A stretch of DNA of 64,000 bases from Dyella sp. EPa41. GTDB taxonomy: Bacteria; Pseudomonadota; Gammaproteobacteria; Xanthomonadales; Rhodanobacteraceae. Made by a program: the position numbers and the translations under genes. Under the pieces are notes generated by a model. It ran no database searches. It saw nothing but the letters and a program-made list of their open reading frames with translations, and was not told the origin of the DNA. Below, piece by piece: positions 1,438 to 15,220 of the stretch (the stretch's first letter is position 1; every line of letters starts with the position of its first letter). Location: NCBI RefSeq assembly GCF_016586165.1, contig NZ_BCPR01000010.1:1-64000 (forward strand). The letters run 5' to 3'.

Positions 1438-1590
1438 TTAACGCCTCGCCGCCGGTTTGCCCGCGGGCCGCATTGACGCGGCGGTTGAGACGAGGGACCC
1501 GCACGATGCGTGAACGCACCATTTTGCGAACACCCTGCTGACACGTTCGCCGGTGCAGTCTCCCCATCGACCCTCGAAGGAGCCCAGCCC

Positions 1591-3147
1591 ATGAGCATGT
1601 CCACCGCCCGGCACAGCCAATGGCCTCTTGGCAAAGACGCAAAATACCTCGGCCCGCACCAGGGCACGGAACCGATCGATGTCACGCTCGTGATGCGACG
1701 ACGTGGCGGCCACCCCGCGCCCGCCGCGTGGCCGCACCGGCCGCCATGCAAGCGTGAGGATTTCGACACGCAATGGGGCGCCGATCCCGCTGATGCGCAG
1801 AAGCTGCGCGCTTTCGCGCAGCAGCACGGCCTGGCCGAGACCGGATGCGATCTGCATCGCCGCGTCATGCATCTGCGCGGCACGCCGCAACAACTGCAGC
1901 AGGCCTTCGGCATCCAACTGGGCAGCTACCAGATGCCCGATGGCGGGCCGATCAAGCGCGGATGCCACGGCAAGCCCACGCTGCCCAGCGACGTTTCACC
2001 CGCCGTGCTCGCCGTGCTTGGCCTGGACCAGCGACCGGTCGCGCGTCCGCATTTCCGTCGCCTGGCCGCTGCGGCCGCCGCCAAGTCCCATACGCCGCTG
2101 CAGGTCGGTGAACTTTATGGTTTTCCGGCAAACACCGACGGCAGCGGCCAGACCGTGGCCATCATCGAGTTGGGTGGCGGCTATACCGCCAGTGATTTCA
2201 GCCGGTACATGCAATCGCTGGGCATCACCAAGGTGCCCAAGGTCGACGTGGTTTCGGTGGCTGGCGGCACCAGCCAGCCCGGTGGCGACGCGGACGGCGA
2301 AGTGATGCTGGACGTGGAAGTGATCGGCGCACTCGCGCAGGGCGCGTCCATCGCCGTGTACTTCGCGCCCAATACCGACCAGGGTTTCTACGAGGCCATT
2401 TCGCAGGCTGCGCACGACAGCACGCGCAATCCGTCCGTCATCTCGATCAGCTGGGGCGGCCCGGAAGACAGCTGGGCCTCGACCACGCTCCAAGCCATGG
2501 AGAGCGCGCTGCAGGATGCCACCACGCTTGGCGTCACCGTTACCGCCGCCAGCGGCGACAGCGGGTCCACCGACGGCGAAACCGACGGCCAGCAGCACGT
2601 GGACTATCCCTCCTCCAGCGCGTACGTGCTCGCCTGCGGCGGCACCAAGCTCAGCGGCAGCGGCACCAAGATCTCCAGCGAAACCGTGTGGAACGAGCTC
2701 TCGAAGAACGAAGGCGCGACCGGCGGCGGCGTCAGCGCCAGCTTCGGCCAGCCCACATGGCAGGCGTCCGCGAAGGTGCCCGCAGGCGCCAACGGCTTCA
2801 GCGGCCGCGGCGTGCCTGACGTGGCCGGCAACGCCGATCCGGAGACCGGCTACCAGGTGCTGGTCGACGGGCAGAGCCAGGTCATCGGCGGCACCAGTGC
2901 CGTGGCGCCGCTATGGGCCGCGCTGATCGCGCGTTTCAACCAGCAACTGGGGCAGAACGTGGGCGATGTGCACGAGGCGCTCTACGGTATCGGCAAGAAG
3001 GCGTTCCACGACATCACCCGGGGCAACAACGGCGCCTTCAAGGCGGCGAGCGGCTGGGATGCGTGTACCGGCTGGGGCAGCCCCAAAGGCCAGACGCTGC
3101 TGACGTCGCTGGCGTCGTTGAAAGGCAGTGGCGCCGTGAGTGGATAA
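1591..3147 (+). CDS. Sedolisin (S53) serine-carboxyl peptidase with pro-domain, kumamolisin type
   Basis: Acid-active endopeptidase family with a subtilisin fold and a Ser-Glu-Asp triad. In the 518-residue product the expected residues are present: E237 and D241 in GDADGEVMLDVEV, oxyanion D323 in ASGDSGS, and nucleophile S436 in GGTSAVAP. Their spacing closely follows kumamolisin. Residues 1 to about 165 form the activation pro-domain. The C-terminal FHDITRGNNG...GWDACTGWGSP region is the calcium site. No classical signal peptide is visible, as in other kumamolisins, so the export route is unclear. The start at 1591 has GGAG 8 nt upstream; an upstream in-frame ATG at 1510 would add 27 residues and lacks support. 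A REP pair follows the stop codon. Confidence 0.93.
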   Translation: MSMSTARHSQWPLGKDAKYLGPHQGTEPIDVTLVMRRRGGHPAPAAWPHRPPCKREDFDTQWGADPADAQKLRAFAQQHGLAETGCDLHRRVMHLRGTPQQLQQAFGIQLGSYQMPDGGPIKRGCHGKPTLPSDVSPAVLAVLGLDQRPVARPHFRRLAAAAAAKSHTPLQVGELYGFPANTDGSGQTVAIIELGGGYTASDFSRYMQSLGITKVPKVDVVSVAGGTSQPGGDADGEVMLDVEVIGALAQGASIAVYFAPNTDQGFYEAISQAAHDSTRNPSVISISWGGPEDSWASTTLQAMESALQDATTLGVTVTAASGDSGSTDGETDGQQHVDYPSSSAYVLACGGTKLSGSGTKISSETVWNELSKNEGATGGGVSASFGQPTWQASAKVPAGANGFSGRGVPDVAGNADPETGYQVLVDGQSQVIGGTSAVAPLWAALIARFNQQLGQNVGDVHEALYGIGKKAFHDITRGNNGAFKAASGWDACTGWGSPKGQTLLTSLASLKGSGAVSG

Positions 3148-4196: not shown

Positions 4197-4640
4197 TCAG
4201 CGACCCGCGCAAGCCGCAGGCGTCGTCACCGCGCCGTTGGGCTCGCATTGGATGGCTTCGGCACCCGGCTCCGGCATGGGCATGCCCGGCCGGTAGGGTG
4301 CATAGGAGGGAGCCGGCACGGGCCGGACGGTGCCGGTACGACTCGCGGCCAGGGAGAACGCGGATGTGGCGGCGAAACCGAACGCCGCCGCCGAAACACG
4401 CTCGCCCTGCGTGGGTCCGCTGGGAAATACCGGCACCGGGCTGCGAGGCGCGGACCGCGGCCGCTCGACCGCACCGGCCACGTTTCCGGCAAGCGGTTCG
4501 CGATAGCCGGCCTCGGCCGCTGCATCGGGCTTCGGCGGCGGCGGCGAAAGCATCGGCGTCGTACTCCCCTGTTGCGCGAACGTGGGCGACGGCGCCACAC
4601 AGGCAACCGCCATTGCCAGGCAAAACATCGTGCATTTCAT
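4197..4640 (-). CDS. Small exported proline/alanine-rich protein, unknown function
   Basis: 147 residues starting MKCTMFCLAMAVACVAPS with a probable signal peptide cleaved near TFAQ. The rest is low-complexity, rich in Pro, Ala and Gly, with PPPPKP and several PxP segments, and two late cysteines (IQCEPNG, PAACAG). The start at 4640 has an excellent GGAGG 8 nt upstream; longer in-frame starts lack this. It is divergent from the borosin-type methyltransferase with about 206 bp between starts, so a shared control region is possible. I recognise no family. A role beside the RiPP-like locus is only a guess from position. Confidence 0.65.
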   Translation of the reverse strand: MKCTMFCLAMAVACVAPSPTFAQQGSTTPMLSPPPPKPDAAAEAGYREPLAGNVAGAVERPRSAPRSPVPVFPSGPTQGERVSAAAFGFAATSAFSLAASRTGTVRPVPAPSYAPYRPGMPMPEPGAEAIQCEPNGAVTTPAACAGR

Positions 4641-4846
4641 CTGCCGCGCCTCCGCTTCATCCATGACAGGCCACCGATCGTTGCCGAGACTGTACCCGGC
4701 CGGGCGGAGGACGCTCCAGCGGCGATGCGCCACTCCCTGGCGATTCGTTCATCCGGCTGGCGGGCCGCAAAGCGCTGCACTTATGCTGCGGGCACTGGCG
4801 TACGCCGCCGGCATCCCAGCCCTTCGCGATCACGGAGCACAAGGTA

Positions 4847-5650
4847 GTGACCACCACCTCGACCGGCAGCCTGGCCTGCGTGGGCATCGGCATCACCCTG
4901 GGATCGCACATCAGCCCGCTGGCCCGCAGCCATATCGAGACGTCCAACGTGGTGTTCACGGCCGTGTCCGATGGCATCGTCGAGCTCTGGCTCAAGGAAA
5001 TGAACCCGGACGTGCGCAGCCTCCAGCCCCTCTACGCCGAGGGCAAGCCACGCCCGCAGACCTATCGCGAGATGGTGGAAGCCATGATGACCGAGGTGCG
5101 CGCCGGCAAGCGCGTCTGCGGCGTGTTCTACGGTCATCCGGGCGTCTTCGCGTGGGCGCCGCACCGGGCGATCAAGGTGGCTCGCGAGGAAGGCTATCGC
5201 GCGCATATGGAGCCCGGCATTTCCTCGGAGGACTGCCTGTATGCCGACCTGGGCATCGACCCCGGCAGGGTGGGCTGCCAGCATTTCGATACCACCCAGT
5301 TCATGCTCTTCCGCCGCAACGTCGACCCGAGCGCGTGGCTGATCCTGTGGCAGGTCGGCCTGGCGGGCGAACAGACCGGCCGCCGGTTTGCCACGGGCCC
5401 GGCCTACCGCCGGGTGCTGGTGGACGTCCTGTTGCGTGACTACCCGGCCGACCACGAAGTGACCGTCTACCGGGCCGCCACATTACCGTTGCAAGCTCCG
5501 CGTATGGAGCGCCTGCCAATTTCGGGGTTGACTGATATCGATCTCACCATGTCCGATACCCTTGCAGTGCCGCCCTGTCGAGAGATGGAGGTCGATCACG
5601 CGATACGCGACCGACTGACGGCGCTGGATGCGGCTTTTGCAGCCAACTGA
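4847..5650 (+). CDS. Borosin-type peptide backbone alpha-N-methyltransferase (stand-alone, TP-methylase fold)
   Basis: Predicted SAM-dependent enzyme that N-methylates the peptide backbone of a partner precursor. The 267-residue protein matches the catalytic domain of fungal OphMA across its hallmark blocks: GIGITLGSHIS near the N-terminus, VFYGHPGVF (93-101) and EPGISSEDCLYADLGIDPG (122-140). The catalytic trio of OphMA (Y66, R72, Y76) appears as Y63, R69 and Y73 with identical spacing. The protein ends soon after the methyltransferase fold and lacks the clasp and core peptide fused in OphMA, as in split bacterial enzymes such as SonM of Shewanella. GTG start with GGAG 9 nt upstream. The small gene at 5802 is the obvious substrate candidate. 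A general tetrapyrrole (precorrin) methylase is the alternative, but the GHPGVF and SSEDCLYADL blocks argue against it. Confidence 0.9.
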   Translation: MTTTSTGSLACVGIGITLGSHISPLARSHIETSNVVFTAVSDGIVELWLKEMNPDVRSLQPLYAEGKPRPQTYREMVEAMMTEVRAGKRVCGVFYGHPGVFAWAPHRAIKVAREEGYRAHMEPGISSEDCLYADLGIDPGRVGCQHFDTTQFMLFRRNVDPSAWLILWQVGLAGEQTGRRFATGPAYRRVLVDVLLRDYPADHEVTVYRAATLPLQAPRMERLPISGLTDIDLTMSDTLAVPPCREMEVDHAIRDRLTALDAAFAAN

Positions 5651-5679
5651 TTTGGCCGCCCGCCAAGCCAGGTGTCATC

Positions 5680-5738
5680 TAGACATTTTTGCCTTAAAAC
5701 AGAGCTATGATCGCTTTCTCCCAGTACTCCCCGGGGAG
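5680..5738 (+). promoter_or_regulatory. Candidate promoter and palindrome ahead of the borosin precursor gene
   Basis: The 151 nt between methyltransferase and precursor contain a good -10 hexamer TATGAT (5706-5711) in an unusually A/T-rich patch. The best -35 is weak: TAGACA with a 20 nt spacer, or ACATTT with 17. A perfect 12-nt palindrome, CTCCCCGGGGAG, lies at 5727-5738, close to the expected transcription start. Such a promoter would let the precursor be made in excess of its enzyme. Seen by eye only. Confidence 0.4.
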
Positions 5739-5801
5739 AGGGGAACGGCAAGTCGGAGGGGGGTGCGTCGCATCAAACGACCATCAGGGGAAATCAAAGC
5801 C

Positions 5802-6116
5802 ATGTCGAGCGTCATCGAGTTCTTGGAGCGCATGGGTGCGGACGCACTCCTGCGCCATGCATCGCAGGAAGAGATCGCCGTAGCAGTGGAAGCGTCGCAG
5901 GTCGATGCCGAAGTCGGGGCGGCGATCATCGCCCGCAGCACGTCCGATCTTTATGCGCTGCTGGATCAACAGCAGCCCATGTTCCACGTGCAGAACAATC
6001 CTGGCCGGGAAGAGGAAGAGGAAGAAGAGGAAGGCGAAGACGACGAGGAAGCACCGTCGCAGCGCAAGCTCGCGGAGCTGCCTTCCGCACGACGCACCAC
6101 CGTCGCGCTGGGATAA
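5802..6116 (+). CDS. Putative split-borosin precursor protein with acidic C-terminal tract
   Basis: 104 residues starting MSSVIEFLERMGADALL; ATG with GGGGA 10 nt upstream. Residues 1 to about 56 are predicted helical and follow the FLxxMGxDAxLRxA...EEI pattern of the small helical borosin-binding domain of SonA-like precursors. A short hydrophobic stretch QPMFHVQ (58-64) then stands where SonA carries its methylated strand. An acidic tract (E70-E77, then GEDDEE) and a Lys/Arg-containing tail ending VALG complete it. It follows the methyltransferase by 151 nt and precedes the GGDEF gene by 8 nt. I infer that it is methylated in trans. The exact core residues are not determinable here, and no leader-protease site is evident. 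Confidence 0.8.
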   Translation: MSSVIEFLERMGADALLRHASQEEIAVAVEASQVDAEVGAAIIARSTSDLYALLDQQQPMFHVQNNPGREEEEEEEEGEDDEEAPSQRKLAELPSARRTTVALG

Positions 6117-6124
6117 GCCCTTCC

Positions 6125-7954
6125 GTGCCTCGGCAAGGCAAAACCTGCCGTTGGACAGCCGCGGCAATGCTGCTGCTTGGCATGGTCGTGGGCGTGGCGA
6201 ACGCCGCGCCCACGACGGAAGTCCCCGAACAACTGCTCAAGCGCGCCGACGCGATCAAGACCGCCGATCACGTCGAGTTCCTTAAAGTCCTCCAGCAGCT
6301 CGACCAGAACGCTGCCGACCTGCCCGTCGACGAGCAGTGGAAGTTGCGTTATCTCAATGCGTGGCAGTGGGCCTTCGACGGCAATTATCCACGCGCCACC
6401 ACCTCGCTCCGTACGATCATCGAGCAGGCGCCCGACAAGGCGCTTCGGCTGCGCGCCATAGGTACGCTGATCAATATCCTTGGCTTCGGTCACCGCTATG
6501 AAGAAGCCTTCATCCAACTGAACCAGCTCGCCGAGCTATTGCCGCAGATCACCGACAAGGAAGCGCGCTACGCGGCCATGGCGGATGCGGCGCAATTCCT
6601 CATCATCGCCCGCCAGTACGACCAGGCGGTGGAGTACGCCGACCAGATGATGAAGAGCGTGCCGGACGGCATGAATGGATGCCGGGCCCTCTATTTCAAG
6701 CTCCATGCGCTCTTTCATGGCAAGACGGTCAGGCTCGCGCAAAACCAGCTCCAGGAAGGAGTGGATCTATGCATGGGCGCCAACGAGTCGCTGCTGGCCA
6801 ATGCCGTCCGCACCGACATGGCGACACTCGACATCGAGCAAGGGCACCCTGTCGAAGCCGTGCACCTGCTCGAAGGACACTATGCCGAGGTGCAGGGATA
6901 CGAATATCCGGCCCTCATGCAGTACTTCAATGTGTTGCTCGCGAAAGGCTATTACCGCCTGGGCGATCTGGTGAAGGCCCGTCGCTATGCGCTCGCCACG
7001 ATCGCAAGCGCGGTTGAAAACGAGATCAGCGAGCCGCTGGGCCAGGCCTACGATTTGCTCTACCGCATCGAGAATCAGCAGGGCCACGCGACGGAAGCAC
7101 TCGCCTACCACGAAAAATTCATGGCGGCGGACAAAGGCTATTTGACGGACGTCAGTGCGGGAGCGTTGGCCTATCAGGCCGTCAAACAGCAGGTACAGAC
7201 CAAGAAGAACGAAGTCGACACCCTCAACCGCCAGAACCAGATACTCCAGCTCCAGCGCGAGCTCGATCACAAGGCCATGGAAACCAGCCGGCTGTACATC
7301 GCCCTGCTGCTCACCGTGCTCGCTTCGGCCGGTTTCTGGCTGTTGCGCACCAAGCGATCGCAATTGCGGTTCAAGCGGCTGGCGACGCAGGACAGCCTCA
7401 CGCACATCTGCAGCCGCCAGCATTTCGTCGACGAGGCGGAACAGGTGCTGCGCCAGGCGGCCCGCACCACGCGCAGCGTGTGCCTGGTGCTGATGGACCT
7501 GGATCACTTCAAGCTGGTCAACGACACGCATGGGCATGTCATTGGCGACCTGGTGCTGAAGCGCGCTGTGGCTGCCTGCCAGCAGCACCTGCGGCGCAAC
7601 GAGTTGTTCGGGCGGCTGGGCGGCGAGGAATTCGCAATACTGTTCCCCGAGTGCACGGCCGCGCAGGCGCAGGAACGTTCCGAGCGCATCCGCCAGGCGA
7701 TAGCCGCGACGCCGTTGTGGGGCGAGACGCGGCATGTGGTGATCTCGGCCAGCTTCGGCGTGGCGTGCACCGACCGCAGCGGGTATGAACTGCGCCAGCT
7801 GATGATCGATGCCGACAACGCGCTCTATCGCGCCAAGCGCGATGGCCGCAACCGGGTGATCTACGGCGATGAGATGGACGCGGTGTCCGAGGCCGGGGTG
7901 GCTTCGATCCATGGCGCCGTCCACGACGAACGGCTCGCCGACCTGCCGCATTGA
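6125..7954 (+). CDS. Membrane diguanylate cyclase: periplasmic TPR-like sensor, one TM helix, GGDEF domain
   Basis: Makes cyclic di-GMP from two GTP. The 609-residue protein has a signal peptide or anchor at 1-28 (AAAMLLLGMVVGVANAA) and a helical, TPR-like region to about 350. A coiled-coil stretch (about 355-385) leads to one TM helix near 389-408 (LYIALLLTVLASAGFWLL). The C-terminal GGDEF domain contains MDLDHFKLVNDTHGHVIGD and the active-site GGEEF near 499. The inhibitory I-site, usually RxxD, reads RRNE here, so feedback inhibition may be altered. GTG start 8 nt after the precursor stop implies co-transcription with it. Such sensors respond to unknown periplasmic cues; a link to the borosin product is inference from spacing alone. 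Confidence 0.88.
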   Translation: MPRQGKTCRWTAAAMLLLGMVVGVANAAPTTEVPEQLLKRADAIKTADHVEFLKVLQQLDQNAADLPVDEQWKLRYLNAWQWAFDGNYPRATTSLRTIIEQAPDKALRLRAIGTLINILGFGHRYEEAFIQLNQLAELLPQITDKEARYAAMADAAQFLIIARQYDQAVEYADQMMKSVPDGMNGCRALYFKLHALFHGKTVRLAQNQLQEGVDLCMGANESLLANAVRTDMATLDIEQGHPVEAVHLLEGHYAEVQGYEYPALMQYFNVLLAKGYYRLGDLVKARRYALATIASAVENEISEPLGQAYDLLYRIENQQGHATEALAYHEKFMAADKGYLTDVSAGALAYQAVKQQVQTKKNEVDTLNRQNQILQLQRELDHKAMETSRLYIALLLTVLASAGFWLLRTKRSQLRFKRLATQDSLTHICSRQHFVDEAEQVLRQAARTTRSVCLVLMDLDHFKLVNDTHGHVIGDLVLKRAVAACQQHLRRNELFGRLGGEEFAILFPECTAAQAQERSERIRQAIAATPLWGETRHVVISASFGVACTDRSGYELRQLMIDADNALYRAKRDGRNRVIYGDEMDAVSEAGVASIHGAVHDERLADLPH

Positions 7955-7966
7955 TCGATCGGCCTT

Positions 7967-7984
7967 GCCGCGCCTGCTCGCGGC
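7967..7984. terminator. Candidate stem-loop between convergent genes
   Basis: GCCGCG and CGCGGC arms with a 6-nt loop (CCTGCT), placed between the stops of the GGDEF gene and the convergent glycosyltransferase gene. There is no long T tract, so terminator function is only suggested by position. Confidence 0.4.
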
Positions 7985-8005
7985 GCCCGTCAACGGATCA
8001 GGGCA

Positions 8006-9616
8006 TCAATCGCCCGGCGGCGGCGCCAGTCGGTCGAGCAAGGCCGCATTGGCTTCGACGGTCGGCGATGGCATCAGGCCTACCCAGCCATTGGCGAGCC
8101 TGACGGCGTTCTGGGTGCCCTCCGGCGCCGTACCGCGTCCCGCATAGGCCAGCAGCATGCCGTCGGGATGCGCTTTCGCCCAGGTGGAGGGTCGGGTTGC
8201 TTCGGGCAAGGGCGATGGCAACTGCGCGAGGAAGGTGATGACACCCGGGTCGTTGGGGATGCGCGCCACCGGCACGCCCTGCGCCTGCAGCTCGGTCACG
8301 CGACGGGCGACCTCGCGCGCATCCAGCGCGCCCAGCACCTGCAGCCTGATCAGCGGCAGCAGGGCCATCGCCAACGCCAGGGCGACCACCGACGCACGCT
8401 GCTCCACGCGCAGGCCGCGGCTTGCGAGAAAAAAGACGACGGCCGCCAGCAACAGTGCCGCGGCCAGCAGGTAGAGCCACACCACGGTGTGTCGCTGCTG
8501 GATGCCTCGACCGATGGGCTCGGGTCCAAGCATGGCCCAGGCCAGCACCCCGGCGACCAGCGCAACCAGTATCCACATCCGCCGAATATCGAGCAGGGCG
8601 GGCTCGCTTCTCAGCCAGGCGCCCATCAGGACCGCCGCGCCGGGCATCAGCGGCAGCAGGTAATGCAGCTGCTTGCCGCTCACCACGCAAAACGCGATCA
8701 AGGCCGGCACGCACGCGCACAGGCCGAAGCGGGCGGCGCGCGAGCCACGTGAGCCGCGCATCGCGCTCGCCACGCGGCGCCAGCGCAGCAGCAGCGGCCA
8801 GGGCAACAACAGCACGGGGACCCATGGCAGGTACCACCAGAGCGGGCGGTTGTGCGCAAAGCTCTGCACCACCCGACCCGCCGTCTGGCGCAGCAGCAGG
8901 TTGTCGGCATCCGCGGCACTGAGGTGATGGACCGCGGCCCATGCCCAACCCAATACCGGCAGGCCGCCCAACACGGCCACGAGCAACATCGCCAGCAAAC
9001 GGCGCCACGAGGCACGCGGTCCTTCAGCGGACCACCATGGCGCCAGGATGATCGGGCCGGCCAGATGCAGCAGCATCACCGGACCTTTCGCGAGCATGCC
9101 CAGTGCGCTGGCCGCGAACAGCAGCCACAACGCCGCGGGGCGCCCTTCTCCCACGTAATCCACGATGGCGACGAAGCCCAGCAGCACGCACAGGCACAGC
9201 AGCACGTCGAACATCACCACGCCGGCAAACAGCGCCAGGAAGATCAAGCCGAGCAACAGCCACGGCGCCTGCCCCGATGCGTCGGGAGACAGCCGTTTTT
9301 CCAGCCGCTGGCACAAGGCGATGCAGCCAACCCCACAAAGCGCCACGAGCACGCGCGACGACCACAGGGAAACGCCGAGCACGCTCCAGCCGAGGTTCAA
9401 CAACCAGAACAGCAACGGCGGCTTGTCGAAGTAGGGGGCGCCATTGAGATGCAGGGTGACCCAGCTGCCGGTCTGGCGCATCTCCCAGGCGATGCTCAGG
9501 TAGCGCGTTTCATCGATGGGCACGGGCGGCAACACCACCAGCAGTGGCAACAACACGAGCAGCCACAGCGCCGGTGGAATCTTCAACTGACCGTCACGAC
9601 TGACATTGAAATCCAT
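8006..9616 (-). CDS. GT39/PMT-family membrane glycosyltransferase (ArnT-like)
   Basis: Integral membrane glycosyltransferase that would move a sugar from a polyprenyl-phosphate carrier to a lipid or protein on the periplasmic side. It has 536 residues with many TM helices. The first periplasmic loop carries the family's acidic pair in PIDETRYLSIAWEM (D35, E36), followed by YFDKPPLLFWL, as in ArnT. A periplasmic C-terminal part follows the last helices. No arn operon genes accompany it, so aminoarabinose transfer to lipid A is not supported specifically; other glycan transfer is equally possible. It stands alone between the GGDEF gene (convergent) and the RND operon. Confidence 0.85.
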   Translation of the reverse strand: MDFNVSRDGQLKIPPALWLLVLLPLLVVLPPVPIDETRYLSIAWEMRQTGSWVTLHLNGAPYFDKPPLLFWLLNLGWSVLGVSLWSSRVLVALCGVGCIALCQRLEKRLSPDASGQAPWLLLGLIFLALFAGVVMFDVLLCLCVLLGFVAIVDYVGEGRPAALWLLFAASALGMLAKGPVMLLHLAGPIILAPWWSAEGPRASWRRLLAMLLVAVLGGLPVLGWAWAAVHHLSAADADNLLLRQTAGRVVQSFAHNRPLWWYLPWVPVLLLPWPLLLRWRRVASAMRGSRGSRAARFGLCACVPALIAFCVVSGKQLHYLLPLMPGAAVLMGAWLRSEPALLDIRRMWILVALVAGVLAWAMLGPEPIGRGIQQRHTVVWLYLLAAALLLAAVVFFLASRGLRVEQRASVVALALAMALLPLIRLQVLGALDAREVARRVTELQAQGVPVARIPNDPGVITFLAQLPSPLPEATRPSTWAKAHPDGMLLAYAGRGTAPEGTQNAVRLANGWVGLMPSPTVEANAALLDRLAPPPGD

Positions 9617-9729
9617 GCCATCAATCTTGCGTAGCGTCGCTTACGGGATTCTTAGGGGCATGTGTCATTCCTTGCCGCCTCGGGCGTGGCCCGGGGCGGC
9701 AAGGCGATGGCGGTCATGTCCTCGCCCCT

Positions 9730-12700
9730 TTACGGAAGCGCCTTTGTCACACGGCCCTCATCAGGTCGATGTGAACGGCGCGCGGCAAGGCCGATCAAGG
9801 TAGGCAGCACCAGCAGCACCAACGGGTACTGCAACGTGAGGCCCGCGATGATGGCGATGGCCAGCGGCTGCTGGATGCCCGCCCCCGCGCCCAGCGCGAG
9901 CGCCAACGGCAACAGGGTGAGGATGGCCGCCAGCGTGGTCATGGTGATCGGGCGCAGGCGATCGCGGCTCGCCGTGCGCAAGGCTTCGTGCGGCGGCAGG
10001 GTACGCGCAAGCGTCACGTACTCGGACACATAGAAGATGGCCATTTCCGTGCCCATGCCGATGATCATGGTCATGCCCATCATCGCGGTGATGTTGAGGT
10101 CGACCCCGCACAGCCACAGCGCGATGAACACCGCCGTGGCCGAGAACAGCGAACACGCCATCACGATGACCGCGAGCCCGGGCCTGCCGTAAAGGAACAG
10201 CAGCAGCACGAACTCCGCCACCAGCGCCATCAGGAAAACCTTGGTGAGCCCGACGAACGCGATCTGCTGTTGCTGGTACAGGCCGCCGAGTTCATAGCGC
10301 ATGTCGGCATCGAGCATGCCGGGCTTCGCCAGCAGCTGCTTCACGTCCGCCACGGCGGCGCCCATGCCCCGCCCCTCGATGCGCGCGGTGACGGCAACCA
10401 TCTGCTGCAGGTTCTCGCGCGAGATCTGCGGCTGGCCATTTTCCGTCGCGATCGTCGCCACCCGGCTGAGCGGAAACACATGGCCGTCCGGCGCGCGGAT
10501 GGGCAGCGCGAGCAACTGCGGCTCCCGCCATTGCATGGCATCGGGCATGCGCACGCGCACCCCCACGCTCTTGGTCGCCTGCGGAATCTGCGTGGCGATG
10601 ACGCCGGTGAGTGCGCTGTCCACGGCCTGCGTGACGGCGCCCACCGTCATGCCCTCGACCATCGCCTTGTCGCCATCGACCTGCACCTTCAGTGCGTCGC
10701 CGGCAAGTTGCACGCCATCCTTGATCTCCACCACGCCCGGGATATCGGCCAGGGCCTTGGCGATCTTCTGCGCCTGCGGCACCAGCTGCGCAGGGTCGAC
10801 GGCGTACAGCTTGATCTCGATGGGCTGCGGCACCGCGGTGAGATCGCCGATGAGGTCTTCCATCAGCTGCGCCAGTTCCACCTGCACGCCCGGTATGCCG
10901 CTCTCGACCTGCTGGCGCACATCGCTCATCACGTCTTCGGTCGAGCGCGCGTGATCGGGCTTGAGGCGCACGAAGTAGTCACCGTGGTAGGACTGCCCCA
11001 GTTCACCGCCCAGGCCGGTGCCGAGCCGGCGCGAGAACGTGGCCACTTCCGGGGTCTTGCGCAGGATGGCATCGATCTGGCCGATCTGCCGCTCGGTTTC
11101 GGGCAGCGATCGGCCAGGCTTCGCGTAGTAGTCCATCACGAAGCCGCCCTCGTCCGCGTCGGGCATGAAGCCGGTGGCCACGTGCGTGTAGGCGATGCCG
11201 CCGACCAGCAGCAGCGGCACGACGATCGCCAACAGCCAGGCAGGCCGTCGCGCGAGTCCGTCATAAAGCCGCCCATGCCAGCGCGACAGCCACTGGTCAT
11301 GCGTGAAGCCGGGATCGTGCCAGCGCCTGAAATCCACCAGCCAGCGCAGCAGGGGCGGCACCACCCATGCGCTGACCAGCCAGGACACGGTGAGCGCCGC
11401 GGCCATGGTGAGTGACAACGCCTTCGAGAACGAACCCGTCACGCCGCCCAGCAGGCCCAGCGGAATGAACACGATCAGCGTGGCCAGGCTCGAGCCGGTG
11501 AGCGGCGCGAGAAATTCCCGCGCGGCCGGCAAGACGGCCTCCCTGCCGCCGCCCTCCTGCGTGCCGGCACGACGCGCCACGTGCTCCACCATCACGATCA
11601 CGTCGTCGATCACCAGGCCCACGGCGGCCGCGATGCCGCCGAGCGTCATGATGTTGAAGCTCATGCCGAACACCTGCAGCAGCAGCACCGTGACGGCCAG
11701 CGTCAACGGCACCACCACCATGGCGATCAGCGTCACGCGCAGGTTGCGCAGGAACAGCAGCAGCACCGCGGCTGCAAGCAGCAGCCCGATCAGCACCGCA
11801 TCGCGCACGCTGTGCGCGGAATCCACCACCAGGTTGCTCTGGTCGTACCAGTTCTTCAGCTTGACGCCGGCAGGCAGGCGAAACGCCGCCAGTTTCTGGC
11901 GCACGGCGCGGGCGATCTGCACGGCGTTGCCATCGGGCTGCTCGTAGACGTTGAGCAGCACGGCGGGCTTGCCGTCCTCGCTCACCTTGACCCACTGCGG
12001 CACGTAGCCGGCATGGATGTCGGCGACGTCGCCCAGGTGCACCCAGCCGTGCGGGTCGCTCTTCAGCACCACCTTGCGCAAGGCCTCGATGTGCTGCAGC
12101 GAGTGATCGGCCACCACCAGATACAGCTGGTTGCGATCCTGCAGGCGCCCCACGGCTTCCAGCTGGTTGGCGGCGGACAGTGCCGATACCAGATCGTCCA
12201 GCCCCAGGCCGTACTGGGCGAGCTTGCGGGCATCGGCATCCACCTGCAGCTCGGCGGTCTCGCCGCCCTGCACGTCCACGCGCGAAAGACCTTCCACCGA
12301 GGCCAGCAGCGGTACGATCTGGTACTGCGCGAGGTCGCGCAGCGCAACCGGCGACAGCGTGTCCGATTGCAGCGCATAGGAGATGATCGGGAACACCGTG
12401 GGGTCCATGCGCCGCACGTTGTAGGTGGCGCCGGCCGGCAAGCTCGGCAGCACGCGCGCGATCGCCGCGTCCACCTGCAGGGTGGACGCGATCATGTCGC
12501 GCCCCCAGCCGAAGTCGACCGAAATCTGCGCCGATCCGCGCGTGGTATCCGAGCGCACGTTCGCCACGCCGGGCACGGTGCGGATGGCTTCTTCGACGGG
12601 ACGCGTCAGCAACAGCGCCGTCTGGTCGGCGGGACGATCGCCCGCATCGAGGTCGACCACCACGCGGGGAAACGATACCTGCGGGAACAAGCCCACCGGC

Positions 12701-12795
12701 AGGGTGAACGAACTCGCCAGGCCGGCCAGCGCCAACGCAAAAGCCACGATGACGATGGCACGCGCGTGCCTGGCGAGAAACGACGGCATGCTCAT
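9730..12795 (-). CDS. RND-superfamily efflux transporter, inner-membrane pump subunit
   Basis: Proton-driven pump of a tripartite efflux system. At 1021 residues it has normal RND length. TM1 lies near 10-30. The first large periplasmic loop follows (PVGLFPQVSFPRVVVDL), with the central TM bundle from about 335, and the TM4 region reads GGIAAAVGLVIDDVIVMVEH with the adjacent Asp residues that relay protons. The second half repeats the plan and includes GMTMIIGMGTEMAIFYVSEY. Its start overlaps the adaptor stop by 4 nt (ATGA). The sequence does not clearly belong to the drug (HAE) or heavy-metal (HME) branch by eye, so the substrate is open. It is the last gene of the OMF-adaptor-pump operon. 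Confidence 0.92.
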   Translation of the reverse strand: MSMPSFLARHARAIVIVAFALALAGLASSFTLPVGLFPQVSFPRVVVDLDAGDRPADQTALLLTRPVEEAIRTVPGVANVRSDTTRGSAQISVDFGWGRDMIASTLQVDAAIARVLPSLPAGATYNVRRMDPTVFPIISYALQSDTLSPVALRDLAQYQIVPLLASVEGLSRVDVQGGETAELQVDADARKLAQYGLGLDDLVSALSAANQLEAVGRLQDRNQLYLVVADHSLQHIEALRKVVLKSDPHGWVHLGDVADIHAGYVPQWVKVSEDGKPAVLLNVYEQPDGNAVQIARAVRQKLAAFRLPAGVKLKNWYDQSNLVVDSAHSVRDAVLIGLLLAAAVLLLFLRNLRVTLIAMVVVPLTLAVTVLLLQVFGMSFNIMTLGGIAAAVGLVIDDVIVMVEHVARRAGTQEGGGREAVLPAAREFLAPLTGSSLATLIVFIPLGLLGGVTGSFSKALSLTMAAALTVSWLVSAWVVPPLLRWLVDFRRWHDPGFTHDQWLSRWHGRLYDGLARRPAWLLAIVVPLLLVGGIAYTHVATGFMPDADEGGFVMDYYAKPGRSLPETERQIGQIDAILRKTPEVATFSRRLGTGLGGELGQSYHGDYFVRLKPDHARSTEDVMSDVRQQVESGIPGVQVELAQLMEDLIGDLTAVPQPIEIKLYAVDPAQLVPQAQKIAKALADIPGVVEIKDGVQLAGDALKVQVDGDKAMVEGMTVGAVTQAVDSALTGVIATQIPQATKSVGVRVRMPDAMQWREPQLLALPIRAPDGHVFPLSRVATIATENGQPQISRENLQQMVAVTARIEGRGMGAAVADVKQLLAKPGMLDADMRYELGGLYQQQQIAFVGLTKVFLMALVAEFVLLLFLYGRPGLAVIVMACSLFSATAVFIALWLCGVDLNITAMMGMTMIIGMGTEMAIFYVSEYVTLARTLPPHEALRTASRDRLRPITMTTLAAILTLLPLALALGAGAGIQQPLAIAIIAGLTLQYPLVLLVLPTLIGLAARRSHRPDEGRVTKALP

Positions 12796-13838
12796 GGCTT
12801 GGCGTCCGCCCCGGGCGCACGCACCGCCATGCCGTCATCGAGCTGGGTGGCGCCCACGGTCACCAGCGGCCGATGGGCGTCCAGGGCACCACTGACGACG
12901 CTGGCACTGTCGGATTCACCCAGCACTTTCACCGGCACGCGCACGGCCTTGCCGTCGGCCACCTGGAAGACGTAACGGTCCGCTTCGTCGCCCTGCAAGG
13001 CATCGCGCGGCACCAGCCAGCCCTGCCACTGGCCCACCGTGATGTCCGCACGAAAGCTCTCGCCGCTCACCAGGGCGCCATCCGGCACCACCTCCACGTC
13101 CAGCTGGTGCGTGTGCGGGTTCAATGCGCGCGCCACGCGGCGCACGGTGCCGTGCATCGGCCCGGCGGCATCCAGCGGCGTCAGCGTGGCACTGGCGCCC
13201 GACTGCACGCGCCCCATCGCGGAGCGCTCCATGCCTGCCGTCACCACCAGACCATCGCCGCGCTGCAGCGTGAGCAGCGGCGCACCGGGCTGCAACTGAT
13301 CGCCCTGCGACGCATCCACGCTCACCACGGTGCCGTCAAAGGGCGCGGTGACCTCCACGGTGGGCTGGCGCCCCTGCTGCTGCACGAGGGCGTCGAGATT
13401 GGCCTGCGCGTCCTGCAAGGCCTTGTCGGCCTGCTCCTTCTGGTCGCGCGTCGCGAGTTGCTGCGCGAACAGTTCGTCCGTATGCGCACGTGCCGCGGCG
13501 GCGACCTTCTGCGCCGAAAGCGCCTGTTGATAGGCGGCGATGGACGATGGCGAGAGGGCGAAGGTAAGCAGCCGCTGCCCACGCTTCACCGGCAGGCCGG
13601 CCGTCACGTTCCATTGCGCCACATGGCCGGCGGCCTGCACGTTCATGACATGCGTGGCATCGGACGAGGGCCCGGCCGTGCCGTAGGCCACCACCAGCTC
13701 CGGCAGGCTGCCCTGACGCACCGGCACGGTTGTCACGGCGGCGCTGACCGCGGCTTCATCCGGTGCCTCGCCACGCGAACAGGCCGCCAGCATCAGTGCG
13801 GCAAGCGCGGGCATCAACCATGGCTGACGAAACATCAT
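12792..13838 (-). CDS. RND efflux periplasmic adaptor (membrane fusion protein), lipoprotein
   Basis: Connects the pump to the outer-membrane channel. It has 348 residues with an N-terminal lipoprotein signal (MPALAALMLAAC, lipidated Cys about 20). The lipoyl-type half-motifs VMNVQAAGHVAQWNVTAGLPV and VEVTAPFDGTVVSVDASQGDQL flank a helical hairpin (about 95-155, AYQQALSAQKVAAAARAHTDE onward). The beta-barrel and membrane-proximal domains follow. It overlaps both neighbours by 4 nt, so translation is coupled through the operon. Confidence 0.92.
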   Translation of the reverse strand: MMFRQPWLMPALAALMLAACSRGEAPDEAAVSAAVTTVPVRQGSLPELVVAYGTAGPSSDATHVMNVQAAGHVAQWNVTAGLPVKRGQRLLTFALSPSSIAAYQQALSAQKVAAAARAHTDELFAQQLATRDQKEQADKALQDAQANLDALVQQQGRQPTVEVTAPFDGTVVSVDASQGDQLQPGAPLLTLQRGDGLVVTAGMERSAMGRVQSGASATLTPLDAAGPMHGTVRRVARALNPHTHQLDVEVVPDGALVSGESFRADITVGQWQGWLVPRDALQGDEADRYVFQVADGKAVRVPVKVLGESDSASVVSGALDAHRPLVTVGATQLDDGMAVRAPGADAKP

Positions 13839-15220
13839 GGAGCGATCACATCCTGTTCGAGTGAAGTGGGCATGCCGCGGCCGACGAGCAGTTCCACCGC
13901 CGCCTGCTGTTCGAGCATCGTCTGCTCGGTGGCTACCAGCGCGGCCTGGCGATTGAGCGCGGCAACTTCGAGGTCCACGTAGTTGCGCATATCCACCAGC
14001 CCGTCCTGCCAGGCCCGCCTGGCCTGGGCCGCGGCGCGCACGGCATCGTCCTGCGCGGGCACCAGCGCCCGGCGTTGCCGTTGCAGCTGCGCGTATTGGT
14101 CGAGCAGCGCATCCACCTCGTCGCGCGAGGTCGCCATGCGCACCGTGTATTCCTGATGAAGCTGTTCGCGCGTGGCCTTGGCGATGGCCACGTTGCCCTG
14201 GTTGCGGTCGAAGATCGGCAGCGCGAACGACACCGCCGGTCCGCCATTGCGCACGCGGCTGTTGTCCTGCGAGGCGTCGTAACCGATGGACAGCGGCGGG
14301 AATTGCGCGAGCACCGCCGCGCGCAGCGTGGCCTCCTGCGCCCGGTAACCCAACTGCAGGGCAACCAGGTCGGGCCGGCGACGACTGATGCTGTCGGCGT
14401 CCTGGCGAATCGACGCGGCATCGAGATCGGCCGGCGCCAGCGGCGTGGCGAGAGGCACGGCCACCCCGGGTTTCAGTCCCAGCAGGGCGGCGAGTTGTTG
14501 TTGCCGGTCGAGCTGCCGGCGCTGCTGGTCATGCAAGGCCGTGCGCGCATCGGCGGCGGCGGAAAGATCCGAGGCCACCGTCACCCGATCGACGTTGCCT
14601 GCGCCGATCGCATGCGTGATGCGCGCCTCGCGTTGCGTCAGCAGGTCCAGCGCCTGTTGCTGCAGCTCGAGCTGGCGCTGCCCTTCGACGAGATCGATCA
14701 CCAGCAGGCGCGCCTTGCCGATCGTCTGCCATGCTTCCCACAACAGGCTTGCGTCCACTTCGTCGGCGGTCGCCTTGGCGGCCTCGCGTCGCGGCTTGAG
14801 CGTGATCAGCGAGGTGATGTCCTGGGTGATCGAGGCCGTCCACGCCGTGGCGTCGCCGGGGCCCGAGAGCAGGTAGCCGATGCTGCCGCCCACCACCGGA
14901 TTGGGCAGCACGCTGTCCTGCTGCCGCTGTGCCTGTGCCGCCTGGTGACGTGCACGCGCGCTCCTGAGATCCGGATTGTTGAGCAGCGCCAGGCGCTCGA
15001 TCGCATCCGCGCTGAAAGGCTGTGCCGCGGCGTCATAGCCGTGCAGTTGCGCCAGGGATGAAGCCGAGGTCGCCTGTTCCGGCAGCGGCCTGGCCTGGTA
15101 GGTGGCGCAGCCGGCTAGGCAGGCACCGGCCATCAGGGCCATGGCGCGGCCATGAACCTTCAGTAGCGCTGGGGGGAAAGGCAATCGCACCGAGTGTCCG
15201 TACACCGTTGGGGAGTACAC
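13835..15220 (-). CDS. TolC-family outer-membrane efflux factor, lipoprotein
   Basis: Outer-membrane channel of the tripartite system. The translation up to a GTG at 15220 has 461 residues. A lipobox (MALMAGACLAGC) follows, then two repeats of the TolC alpha-barrel domain, with RRRPDLVALQLGYRAQEATLRA marking the second half. The start is uncertain: GTG 15220 and GTG 15190 place a basic region before the lipobox, while ATG 15142 would remove it; none has a strong ribosome site. It is the first gene of the operon and lies 157 bp downstream of the sensor kinase gene. That gap contains CTAA/TTAG half-sites 10 nt apart (CTAACGTTATTGCCTTAG) near the start, a weak candidate operator for the adjacent response regulator. 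Confidence 0.9.
   Translation of the reverse strand: MYSPTVYGHSVRLPFPPALLKVHGRAMALMAGACLAGCATYQARPLPEQATSASSLAQLHGYDAAAQPFSADAIERLALLNNPDLRSARARHQAAQAQRQQDSVLPNPVVGGSIGYLLSGPGDATAWTASITQDITSLITLKPRREAAKATADEVDASLLWEAWQTIGKARLLVIDLVEGQRQLELQQQALDLLTQREARITHAIGAGNVDRVTVASDLSAAADARTALHDQQRRQLDRQQQLAALLGLKPGVAVPLATPLAPADLDAASIRQDADSISRRRPDLVALQLGYRAQEATLRAAVLAQFPPLSIGYDASQDNSRVRNGGPAVSFALPIFDRNQGNVAIAKATREQLHQEYTVRMATSRDEVDALLDQYAQLQRQRRALVPAQDDAVRAAAQARRAWQDGLVDMRNYVDLEVAALNRQAALVATEQTMLEQQAAVELLVGRGMPTSLEQDVIAP

What the first reader, a model, noticed from the sequence alone, without database searches (positions are those of the whole stretch)
4847..6116. Split borosin-type RiPP pair: stand-alone backbone N-methyltransferase plus small precursor
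The enzyme carries the OphMA hallmark blocks (VFYGHPGVF, EPGISSEDCLYADLGIDPG) and its catalytic Tyr-Arg-Tyr at identical spacing (Y63, R69, Y73). The substrate is not fused; a 104-residue protein with a SonA-like helical N-terminus is encoded next. Backbone N-methylation on ribosomal peptides is rare, and bacterial trans-acting versions are few. The family is known; this pairing with its acidic-tailed precursor and neighbours is what I consider possibly undescribed.
Basis: partly seen in the sequence, partly recalled or inferred. Interest (0 to 1): 0.93.

Follow-up and report, generated by a model that had tools for sequence, protein, structure and literature searches.

The report
Methylated-peptide operon with its own sensor
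A bacterial enzyme that methylates the backbone of a small protein is encoded, in nearly all relatives examined, beside a membrane sensor that makes a second messenger, which suggests that the modified peptide is a signal read by that sensor.

Summary
Window 4847-5650 encodes a stand-alone SonM/OphMA-type peptide backbone N-methyltransferase (SonM, E 1e-75); 5802-6116 encodes a separate 104-aa precursor with a SonA-like five-helix leader, a short candidate core and an acidic tail. It is a new member of the type IV split borosins, and not a rare one: the enzyme is in 162 of 233 genomes of the window's family.

Such a TPR protein is in 81 of 83 loci examined. Of 109 copies, 106 have a precursor directly upstream, even where no methyltransferase is near. 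Precursor and TPR copies duplicate in pairs and diverge together. The same order is found beside a SonM 261/263 identical. In three distant loci a hybrid histidine kinase replaces GGDEF.

I infer that the N-methylated peptide is the ligand of the periplasmic TPR sensor (about 60%). Methylation, export and binding are untested. A published figure legend already lists GGDEF among borosin architectures, so the bare link is probably in print; the main split-borosin papers could not be read.

The parts
4847..5650 (+). Peptide alpha-N-methyltransferase, SonM/OphMA type, 267 aa, stop included
   Evidence: phmmer SonM E 1e-75; Pfam TP_methylase 5.9e-19; Y63/R69/Y73 invariant in 32 sequences
5802..6116 (+). 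Separate borosin-type precursor, 104 aa, stop included
   Evidence: ORF; profile's top PDB hits are SonA; own-genome profile hit 6.3e-35
5802..5966 (+). Leader, borosin-binding-domain-like, residues 1-55, five predicted helices
   Evidence: AlphaFold2 helices 2-13, 15-18, 22-31, 36-43, 47-53; Foldseek top five SonA, weak E
5976..6002 (+). Candidate core, residues 59-67, PMFHVQNNP; methylated residues unknown
   Evidence: Position after the SonA-aligned leader and similarity among relatives; inference
6009..6050 (+). Acidic tail, residues 70-83
   Evidence: Sequence; similar tails in 89 of 127 relatives
6125..7954 (+). TPR-type diguanylate cyclase, 609 aa as called from GTG: signal peptide, TPR solenoid, TM, GGDEF; proposed receptor
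   Evidence: GGDEF PF00990 9e-43, no TPR family at its cut-off; AlphaFold2 alpha-solenoid, pLDDT 89; precursor directly upstream in 106 of 109 copies
6224..7084 (+). Predicted periplasmic TPR sensor region, residues 34-320, with invariant C186 and C216
   Evidence: Model; both Cys in 106 of 106 copies
7280..7339 (+). Predicted transmembrane helix, residues 386-405
   Evidence: Hydrophobic segment before GGDEF in 105 of 106 copies
7382..7855 (+). GGDEF domain, residues 420-577, active-site motif GGEEF
   Evidence: Pfam; motif

Best explanation
The three genes 4847-7954 form one operon. SHOWN by sequence: a SonM-type backbone N-methyltransferase, a separate precursor with a SonA-like leader, and a TPR-TM-GGDEF protein that is inherited with the precursor. 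INFERRED: the leader docks on the methyltransferase, which methylates backbone amides in the short core after it (around residues 59-67). The core is then released and reaches the periplasm by an unidentified protease and exporter. There it binds the TPR domain of its own partner protein, and binding changes cyclic-di-GMP synthesis by the GGDEF domain. In other lineages the same input half drives a histidine kinase instead. The backbone methyl groups would make the signal resistant to proteases and specific.
For: Enzyme and leader homology. TPR-type protein in 81 of 83 loci. 106 of 109 TPR copies have a precursor directly upstream on the same strand, median 53 nt from precursor stop to first aligned residue (three partial copies, two of them plainly cut by contig ends, were left out of the count). 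Eight two-cassette loci keep one precursor in front of each TPR copy. Of 18 TPR copies with no methyltransferase in the stretch fetched, 17 have a precursor profile hit directly upstream and 1 a broken remnant. Family genomes: 162 have both, 2 TPR only, 0 enzyme only, 69 neither (lists compared by hand). SonM genus: 56 of 56 TPR hits lie within 3 kb 3' of an enzyme on the same strand; beside a SonM that is 261 of 263 identical, the TPR-GGDEF starts 6 nt after the SonA homologue. Hybrid histidine kinase as output in L192, L193, L194, with a small precursor-like ORF in between. Precursor-leader divergence follows TPR (rho 0.77) more than GGDEF (0.57); partials 0.64 and 0.16, length-reduced control 0.51 and 0.31. 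True pairing beats swapped pairing for TPR in 8 of 8 loci. The TPR model resembles peptide-binding TPRs, among them NprR-NprX and Rap.
Against: No conserved exporter or protease in the neighbourhood; the precursor has no signal peptide that I can see (no predictor run), so delivery to the periplasm is unexplained. TPR folds are generic: eukaryotic LGN scores best, and sequence hits to RapF and the arbitrium receptor are weak (1e-3 to 5e-3). The own genome's third pair (L034) has no TPR protein. The own C5 pair's TPR-GGDEF has an in-frame TGA. Swapped pairings score only slightly below true ones, and the 8 loci share ancestry. TPR copies without their own precursor: second tandem copies in L062 and L104 and in L182, one in L183, and L200, which has neither enzyme nor precursor in 13 kb. 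By the crude hydrophobicity measure 15 of 106 copies lack a clear N-terminal segment and 17 have a further hydrophobic stretch inside the TPR part. Weak TPR-profile hits occur in genomes without the enzyme.
Confidence: 0.6

Rival explanations
1. It is a split borosin natural-product pathway whose peptide acts elsewhere (antibiotic, metal ligand or similar). The TPR-GGDEF protein is a co-inherited regulator that reads some other cue and controls the operon or biofilm.
For: RiPP operons often carry regulators (general knowledge); the own C30 pair has no TPR protein; no export genes seen; some TPR copies stand without a precursor.
Against: Precursor and TPR copies also travel together without the methyltransferase and duplicate as pairs; the output domain differs while the TPR input stays.
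Confidence: 0.22
2. The precursor, methylated or not, acts inside the cell as a small regulatory subunit of the membrane cyclase and is never cleaved or exported.
For: Genes nearly abut (median 53 nt from precursor stop to first aligned residue); no protease or exporter; the acidic tail suits a soluble protein.
Against: A hydrophobic N-terminal segment in 91 of 106 copies, a hydrophobic segment before the output domain in 105 of 106, and two cysteines in 106 of 106 point to a periplasmic TPR domain; correlated divergence is more with TPR than with GGDEF.
Confidence: 0.12
3. The enzyme is an ordinary tetrapyrrole or diphthine methylase and the small ORF next to it is chance.
For: Pfam names it TP_methylase, the superfamily to which borosin enzymes also belong.
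Against: SonM E 1e-75 against precorrin methylases at 0.043 or worse; NCBIfam methylase models far below cut-off; precursor ORFs in 82 of 83 related loci.
Confidence: 0.01

Closest known systems
SonM-SonA type IV split borosin of Shewanella oneidensis (PMC8429565)
   Same: Stand-alone methyltransferase, separate precursor with helical binding domain, core after it, Tyr-Arg-Tyr residues. A locus with a SonM 261 of 263 identical and a SonA homologue (E 4.7e-38) also has a TPR-GGDEF gene directly after the precursor (L208).
   Different: Window precursor is 104 aa with an acidic tail against 71 aa; active-site loop three residues shorter; different core sequence.
OphMA fused fungal borosins
   Same: Methyltransferase fold and active-site region (E about 1e-46).
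   Different: Fungal core is fused to the enzyme; no TPR transducer is known to me in fungal borosins (recalled).
RNPP and Rap peptide receptors (NprR-NprX, Rap-Phr, arbitrium AimR)
   Same: TPR superhelix that would read a small peptide encoded by the neighbouring gene (fold matches for NprR and Rap; weak sequence hits to RapF and AimR).
   Different: Those receptors are cytoplasmic and their peptides unmethylated (recalled); here TPR is predicted periplasmic, joined by a TM helix to GGDEF or histidine kinase.
GGDEF-labelled borosin architecture in Fig. 1 of PMC11395268
   Same: The legend names a GGDEF domain among borosin architectures, so a link is in print (legend read).
   Different: I could not see the figure and read only the introduction, the legends and passages; these give no TPR sensor, pairing rule, histidine-kinase variant or signalling proposal.

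Membership tests
Type IV split borosin | Methyltransferase of the OphMA/SonM family with its active-site residues | tested here: met
Type IV split borosin | Precursor encoded separately, next to the enzyme | tested here: met
   precursor-like ORF in 82 of 83 loci
Type IV split borosin | Leader is a five-helix borosin-binding domain | tested here: met
   Five helices; SonA ranks first by sequence (E 0.032) and by fold (E 1.2); both significances are modest
Type IV split borosin | Backbone alpha-N-methylation of the core | not testable with these tools
   Needs mass spectrometry
Type IV split borosin | Enzyme dimer with two precursors | not tested
TPR-type peptide receptor (RNPP/Rap-like) | TPR solenoid | tested here: met
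   AlphaFold2 pLDDT 89 and Foldseek hits
TPR-type peptide receptor (RNPP/Rap-like) | Cytoplasmic protein acting on DNA or response regulators | tested here: not met
   Hydrophobic N-terminus, TM and GGDEF or histidine kinase instead; so not a member, at most works like one
TPR-type peptide receptor (RNPP/Rap-like) | Binds the peptide encoded next door | not testable with these tools
   Genetic linkage and correlated divergence only
Tetrapyrrole methylase (precorrin/diphthine type) | Best match to those enzymes above their curated cut-offs | tested here: not met
   NCBIfam scores 11-38 bits against cut-offs of 163-525

The most novel reading that the evidence does not exclude
Bacterial split borosins with a TPR partner are peptide-signalling systems: a backbone N-methylated ribosomal peptide is the dedicated ligand of a periplasmic TPR sensor, and evolution exchanges the output (diguanylate cyclase or hybrid histidine kinase) and multiplies ligand-receptor pairs behind one shared methyltransferase.
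Probability: 0.55. Interest if true: 0.92.

Novelty: new variant of a known kind. Interest (0 to 1): 0.74.

Why it matters
The 2021 SonM/SonA paper says that none of the type IV pathways was yet tied to a final natural product (passage read). A nearly fixed partner gene with a sensor architecture turns that open question into a direct binding and c-di-GMP experiment, probably also in the laboratory strain S. oneidensis MR-1 (its own locus was not searched here; L208 is from an unnamed close relative). If right, backbone N-methylation, valued in drug chemistry for peptide stability, would have a natural role in bacterial signalling, and each precursor-TPR pair would predict a new ligand-receptor match.

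Tried and rejected
Divergent precursor orientation (first reading) was an artefact: loci from the genome search are not turned; after correction the precursors listed lie on the enzyme's strand.

Gene-calling misses in five named loci (L073, L107, L108, L122, L124), and in L033 from the own genome, were not real absences: tblastn finds the TPR-GGDEF in all six.

Homogenisation of GGDEF domains within loci was tested and dropped: between-locus pairs with equal GGDEF distance have similar TPR distances.

The sedolisin-like gene 1510-3147 and the small secreted-looking protein 4197-4733 as maturation or export factors: apart from enzyme, precursors and TPR-GGDEF, no gene cluster was in more than 16 of 83 loci, and that one is an antisense ORF over the enzyme (crude gene calling).

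The promoter and terminator scan of 4700-8100 gave no signal above shuffles.

Pfam DUF4611 and ribosomal L10 hits of the precursor are low-complexity matches below cut-off. Hits of the L208 precursor to TAL-effector repeats are sums over many repeats, with no stretch passing on its own.

Literature limits: the papers at 10.1021/acschembio.1c01002 and 10.1039/d3cb00093a are not held. Borosin+diguanylate gave 0 papers, borosin+tetratricopeptide 0, borosin+GGDEF 1. The main bioinformatic borosin papers are therefore unread here; PMC11285071, of which I read passages, names Cho et al. and Imani et al. for them.

Full report
What is in the window. Three genes run in one direction: 4847-5650 (267 aa), 5802-6116 (104 aa) and 6125-7954 (609 aa), followed by an opposite-strand gene at 8006. 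The genome is Dyella-like: the named record nearest in enzyme sequence is D. jiangningensis, 93% identical.

Enzyme. The best solved relative is SonM (E 1e-75), then dbOphM, OphMA and MroMA (5.6e-48 to 1.3e-44); precorrin methylases are at 0.043 or worse. Y63, R69 and Y73 are invariant in a 32-sequence alignment. They align with SonM Y58, R67 and Y71, whose mutation lowers or abolishes turnover (PMC8429565, passages read), with a loop three residues shorter.

Precursor. A profile of 24 relatives finds SonA chains as its seven best PDB hits, best E 0.032, and nothing else better than 0.3. The AlphaFold2 model has five helices in residues 2-53 and none after; PMC8429565 calls the SonA leader a five-helix bundle (passage read). 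Foldseek ranks five SonA chains first, with weak E-values of 1.2 to 4.1. A stronger link is by intermediates: a profile trained on the precursors also hits precursors in the SonM genus (L141, L142, L150), and one of these (same place in L184) matches SonA at 6.7e-26. The likely core is PMFHVQNNP (residues 59-67); the methylated residues are unknown. Acidic tails are common (89 of 127 precursors with at least 25% D/E after residue 57).

How widespread. The enzyme is in 162 of 233 genomes of the family (E 1e-20), 15 of 398 drawn from the phylum (E 1e-25) and 59 of 69 of the SonM genus (E 1e-40). The window's own genome has three enzymes and three precursors, one each on contigs 10, 5 and 30.

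The third gene. In 83 loci (the 80 best of 556 named relatives, plus the three of the own genome) the only neighbour shared by nearly all, besides precursors, is the gene after the precursor: 84 members in 75 loci by crude gene calling, all on the enzyme's strand. A more sensitive search finds a TPR protein of this kind in 81 of 83; the exceptions are L034 (own contig 30) and L095, where the contig ends within the enzyme. The window copy has a GGDEF domain (9e-43) with motif GGEEF and a TPR solenoid (AlphaFold2 pLDDT 89), though no Pfam TPR family reaches its cut-off. Among 106 copies, 91 have a hydrophobic N-terminus, 105 a hydrophobic segment before the output domain, 106 the two cysteines (window C186, C216), 104 the GGDEF motif and 76 an RxxD inhibition-site pattern, which the window copy lacks by eye; 17 have a further hydrophobic stretch inside the TPR part. 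A TM segment between TPR and GGDEF, with GTP only in the cytoplasm, places TPR in the periplasm (inference).

Pairing. In 102 loci examined (window, L033, L053-L132, L162-L181) there are 109 TPR copies with at least 300 aligned model positions; three partial copies were left out. Of the 109, 106 have a precursor directly upstream. The other three are second tandem copies in L062 and L104, and L167, where a broken precursor remnant lies upstream. Eight loci hold two TPR copies, each behind its own precursor, with one methyltransferase. The 20 loci L162-L181 were picked by eye from the listed rows as TPR copies far from any listed enzyme; two (L180, L181) turned out to have an enzyme or a piece of it beside them. 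Of the other 18, 17 have a precursor profile hit and one the remnant; one of the 17 (L168) has a deviating start and may be broken. Genome co-occurrence is near perfect: 162 both, 2 TPR only (G038, G080), 0 enzyme only, 69 neither (compared by hand). Linked genes co-occur by inheritance, so this alone does not show joint function.

Specificity in the phylum sample. The TPR profile matches 19 of 398 genomes at 1e-6. Ten have a match of 1e-40 or better; nine of these also have the enzyme, the exception being G518 (L200). Weaker hits also fall in genomes without the enzyme (G550, G301, G562, G582) and away from the enzyme in others.

Prototype and distant loci. In the SonM genus all 56 TPR hits lie within 3 kb downstream of an enzyme, median 357 nt; 54 of 59 enzyme genomes have one. 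The five without a hit at that threshold also carry a GGDEF protein directly after the enzyme region, four of them with TPR matches in Pfam (L203-L207). In L208 the enzyme is 261 of 263 identical to SonM by my count of the alignment, the precursor matches SonA at 4.7e-38 with a near-identical leader and a differing core, and the TPR-GGDEF starts 6 nt after the precursor. Of 14 enzyme loci from the phylum sample, 13 have a small precursor-like ORF and a TPR transducer. Ten carry GGDEF: nine with the GGEEF motif, L191 with a GGDEF domain lacking it. Three (L192, L193, L194) carry hybrid histidine kinases. The precursor ORFs of L187, L188 and L192-L194 were called by position, size and appearance, not by profile; in L185 precursor and TPR lie on the strand opposite to the enzyme, and in L191 the enzyme follows the TPR gene. 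L183 has a second TPR-GGDEF, with GGEEI at the active site, without a precursor that I can see upstream. L195 has the methyltransferase inside a 1174-aa ORF and no partner seen.

Correlated divergence. Over 104 precursor-TPR pairs, precursor leader distance correlates with TPR distance (rho 0.77) more than with GGDEF distance in the same protein (0.57); partials 0.64 and 0.16. With TPR cut to half the GGDEF columns the partials are 0.51 and 0.31. In 8 of 8 two-cassette loci the true pairing scores higher than the swapped one for TPR, by small margins and with shared ancestry between loci; for GGDEF it is higher in 4, equal in 2 and lower in 2 after rounding. An expected homogenisation of GGDEF domains was not found.

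Mechanism. By homology: leader-guided backbone methylation. Inferred: cleavage, export, binding to the periplasmic TPR domain and change in c-di-GMP. The TPR model resembles peptide-binding superhelices, LGN first, then NprR-NprX and Rap with its peptide; sequence hits to RapF and the arbitrium receptor are weak. The missing exporter and protease are the main gap.

Novelty. Type IV split borosins are known, and the legend of Fig. 1 of PMC11395268 lists a GGDEF domain in borosin architecture, so the bare association is probably published. No held paper joins borosin with diguanylate or tetratricopeptide. The pairing rule, duplication of pairs, pairs away from the enzyme, the kinase variant and the signalling proposal are what may be new; the main split-borosin papers could not be read.

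Noticed in passing
L034 (own contig 30): enzyme 9248-10084, precursor 10152-10433, RHS protein 10946-15085: Third own methyltransferase-precursor pair has no TPR partner; a large gene downstream encodes an RHS-repeat protein. The precursor end GIAVQLFAVQL lacks the acidic tail.
   Followed up: partly
L033 (own contig 5), from 10343: Second own cassette's TPR-GGDEF (42% identical) has one in-frame TGA, so it may be an inactive copy; the TPR part is open.
   Followed up: partly
L200 6863-7036 and 7790-9529: A TPR-GGDEF without methyltransferase or borosin-type precursor in 13 kb lies about 750 nt after a small ORF that looks like a double-glycine leader peptide (MRELKANDIQKISGG), perhaps another peptide ligand; leader motif recognised from memory.
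   Followed up: no
L117 and L121 precursors: Proline-glycine-rich cores (PPGPPG...) replace the usual hydrophobic core.
   Followed up: no
Related precursors (127 in all), core region: 36 of 127 carry a Cys-Cys pair in the core region, by eye mostly Rhodanobacter-type; metal or disulfide chemistry possible.
   Followed up: no
L183 3618-5381: TPR-GGDEF protein just after a valine-tRNA-ligase-like gene, with a degenerate GGEEI motif and no precursor seen upstream; a possible orphan receptor.
   Followed up: partly
window 1510-3147: Protease-like gene with a pro-kumamolisin activation domain, close to the operon but not among the shared neighbours.
   Followed up: partly
L195 6839-10363: Methyltransferase domain inside a 1174-aa ORF in a distant phylum member, a possible fused borosin type.
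   Followed up: no
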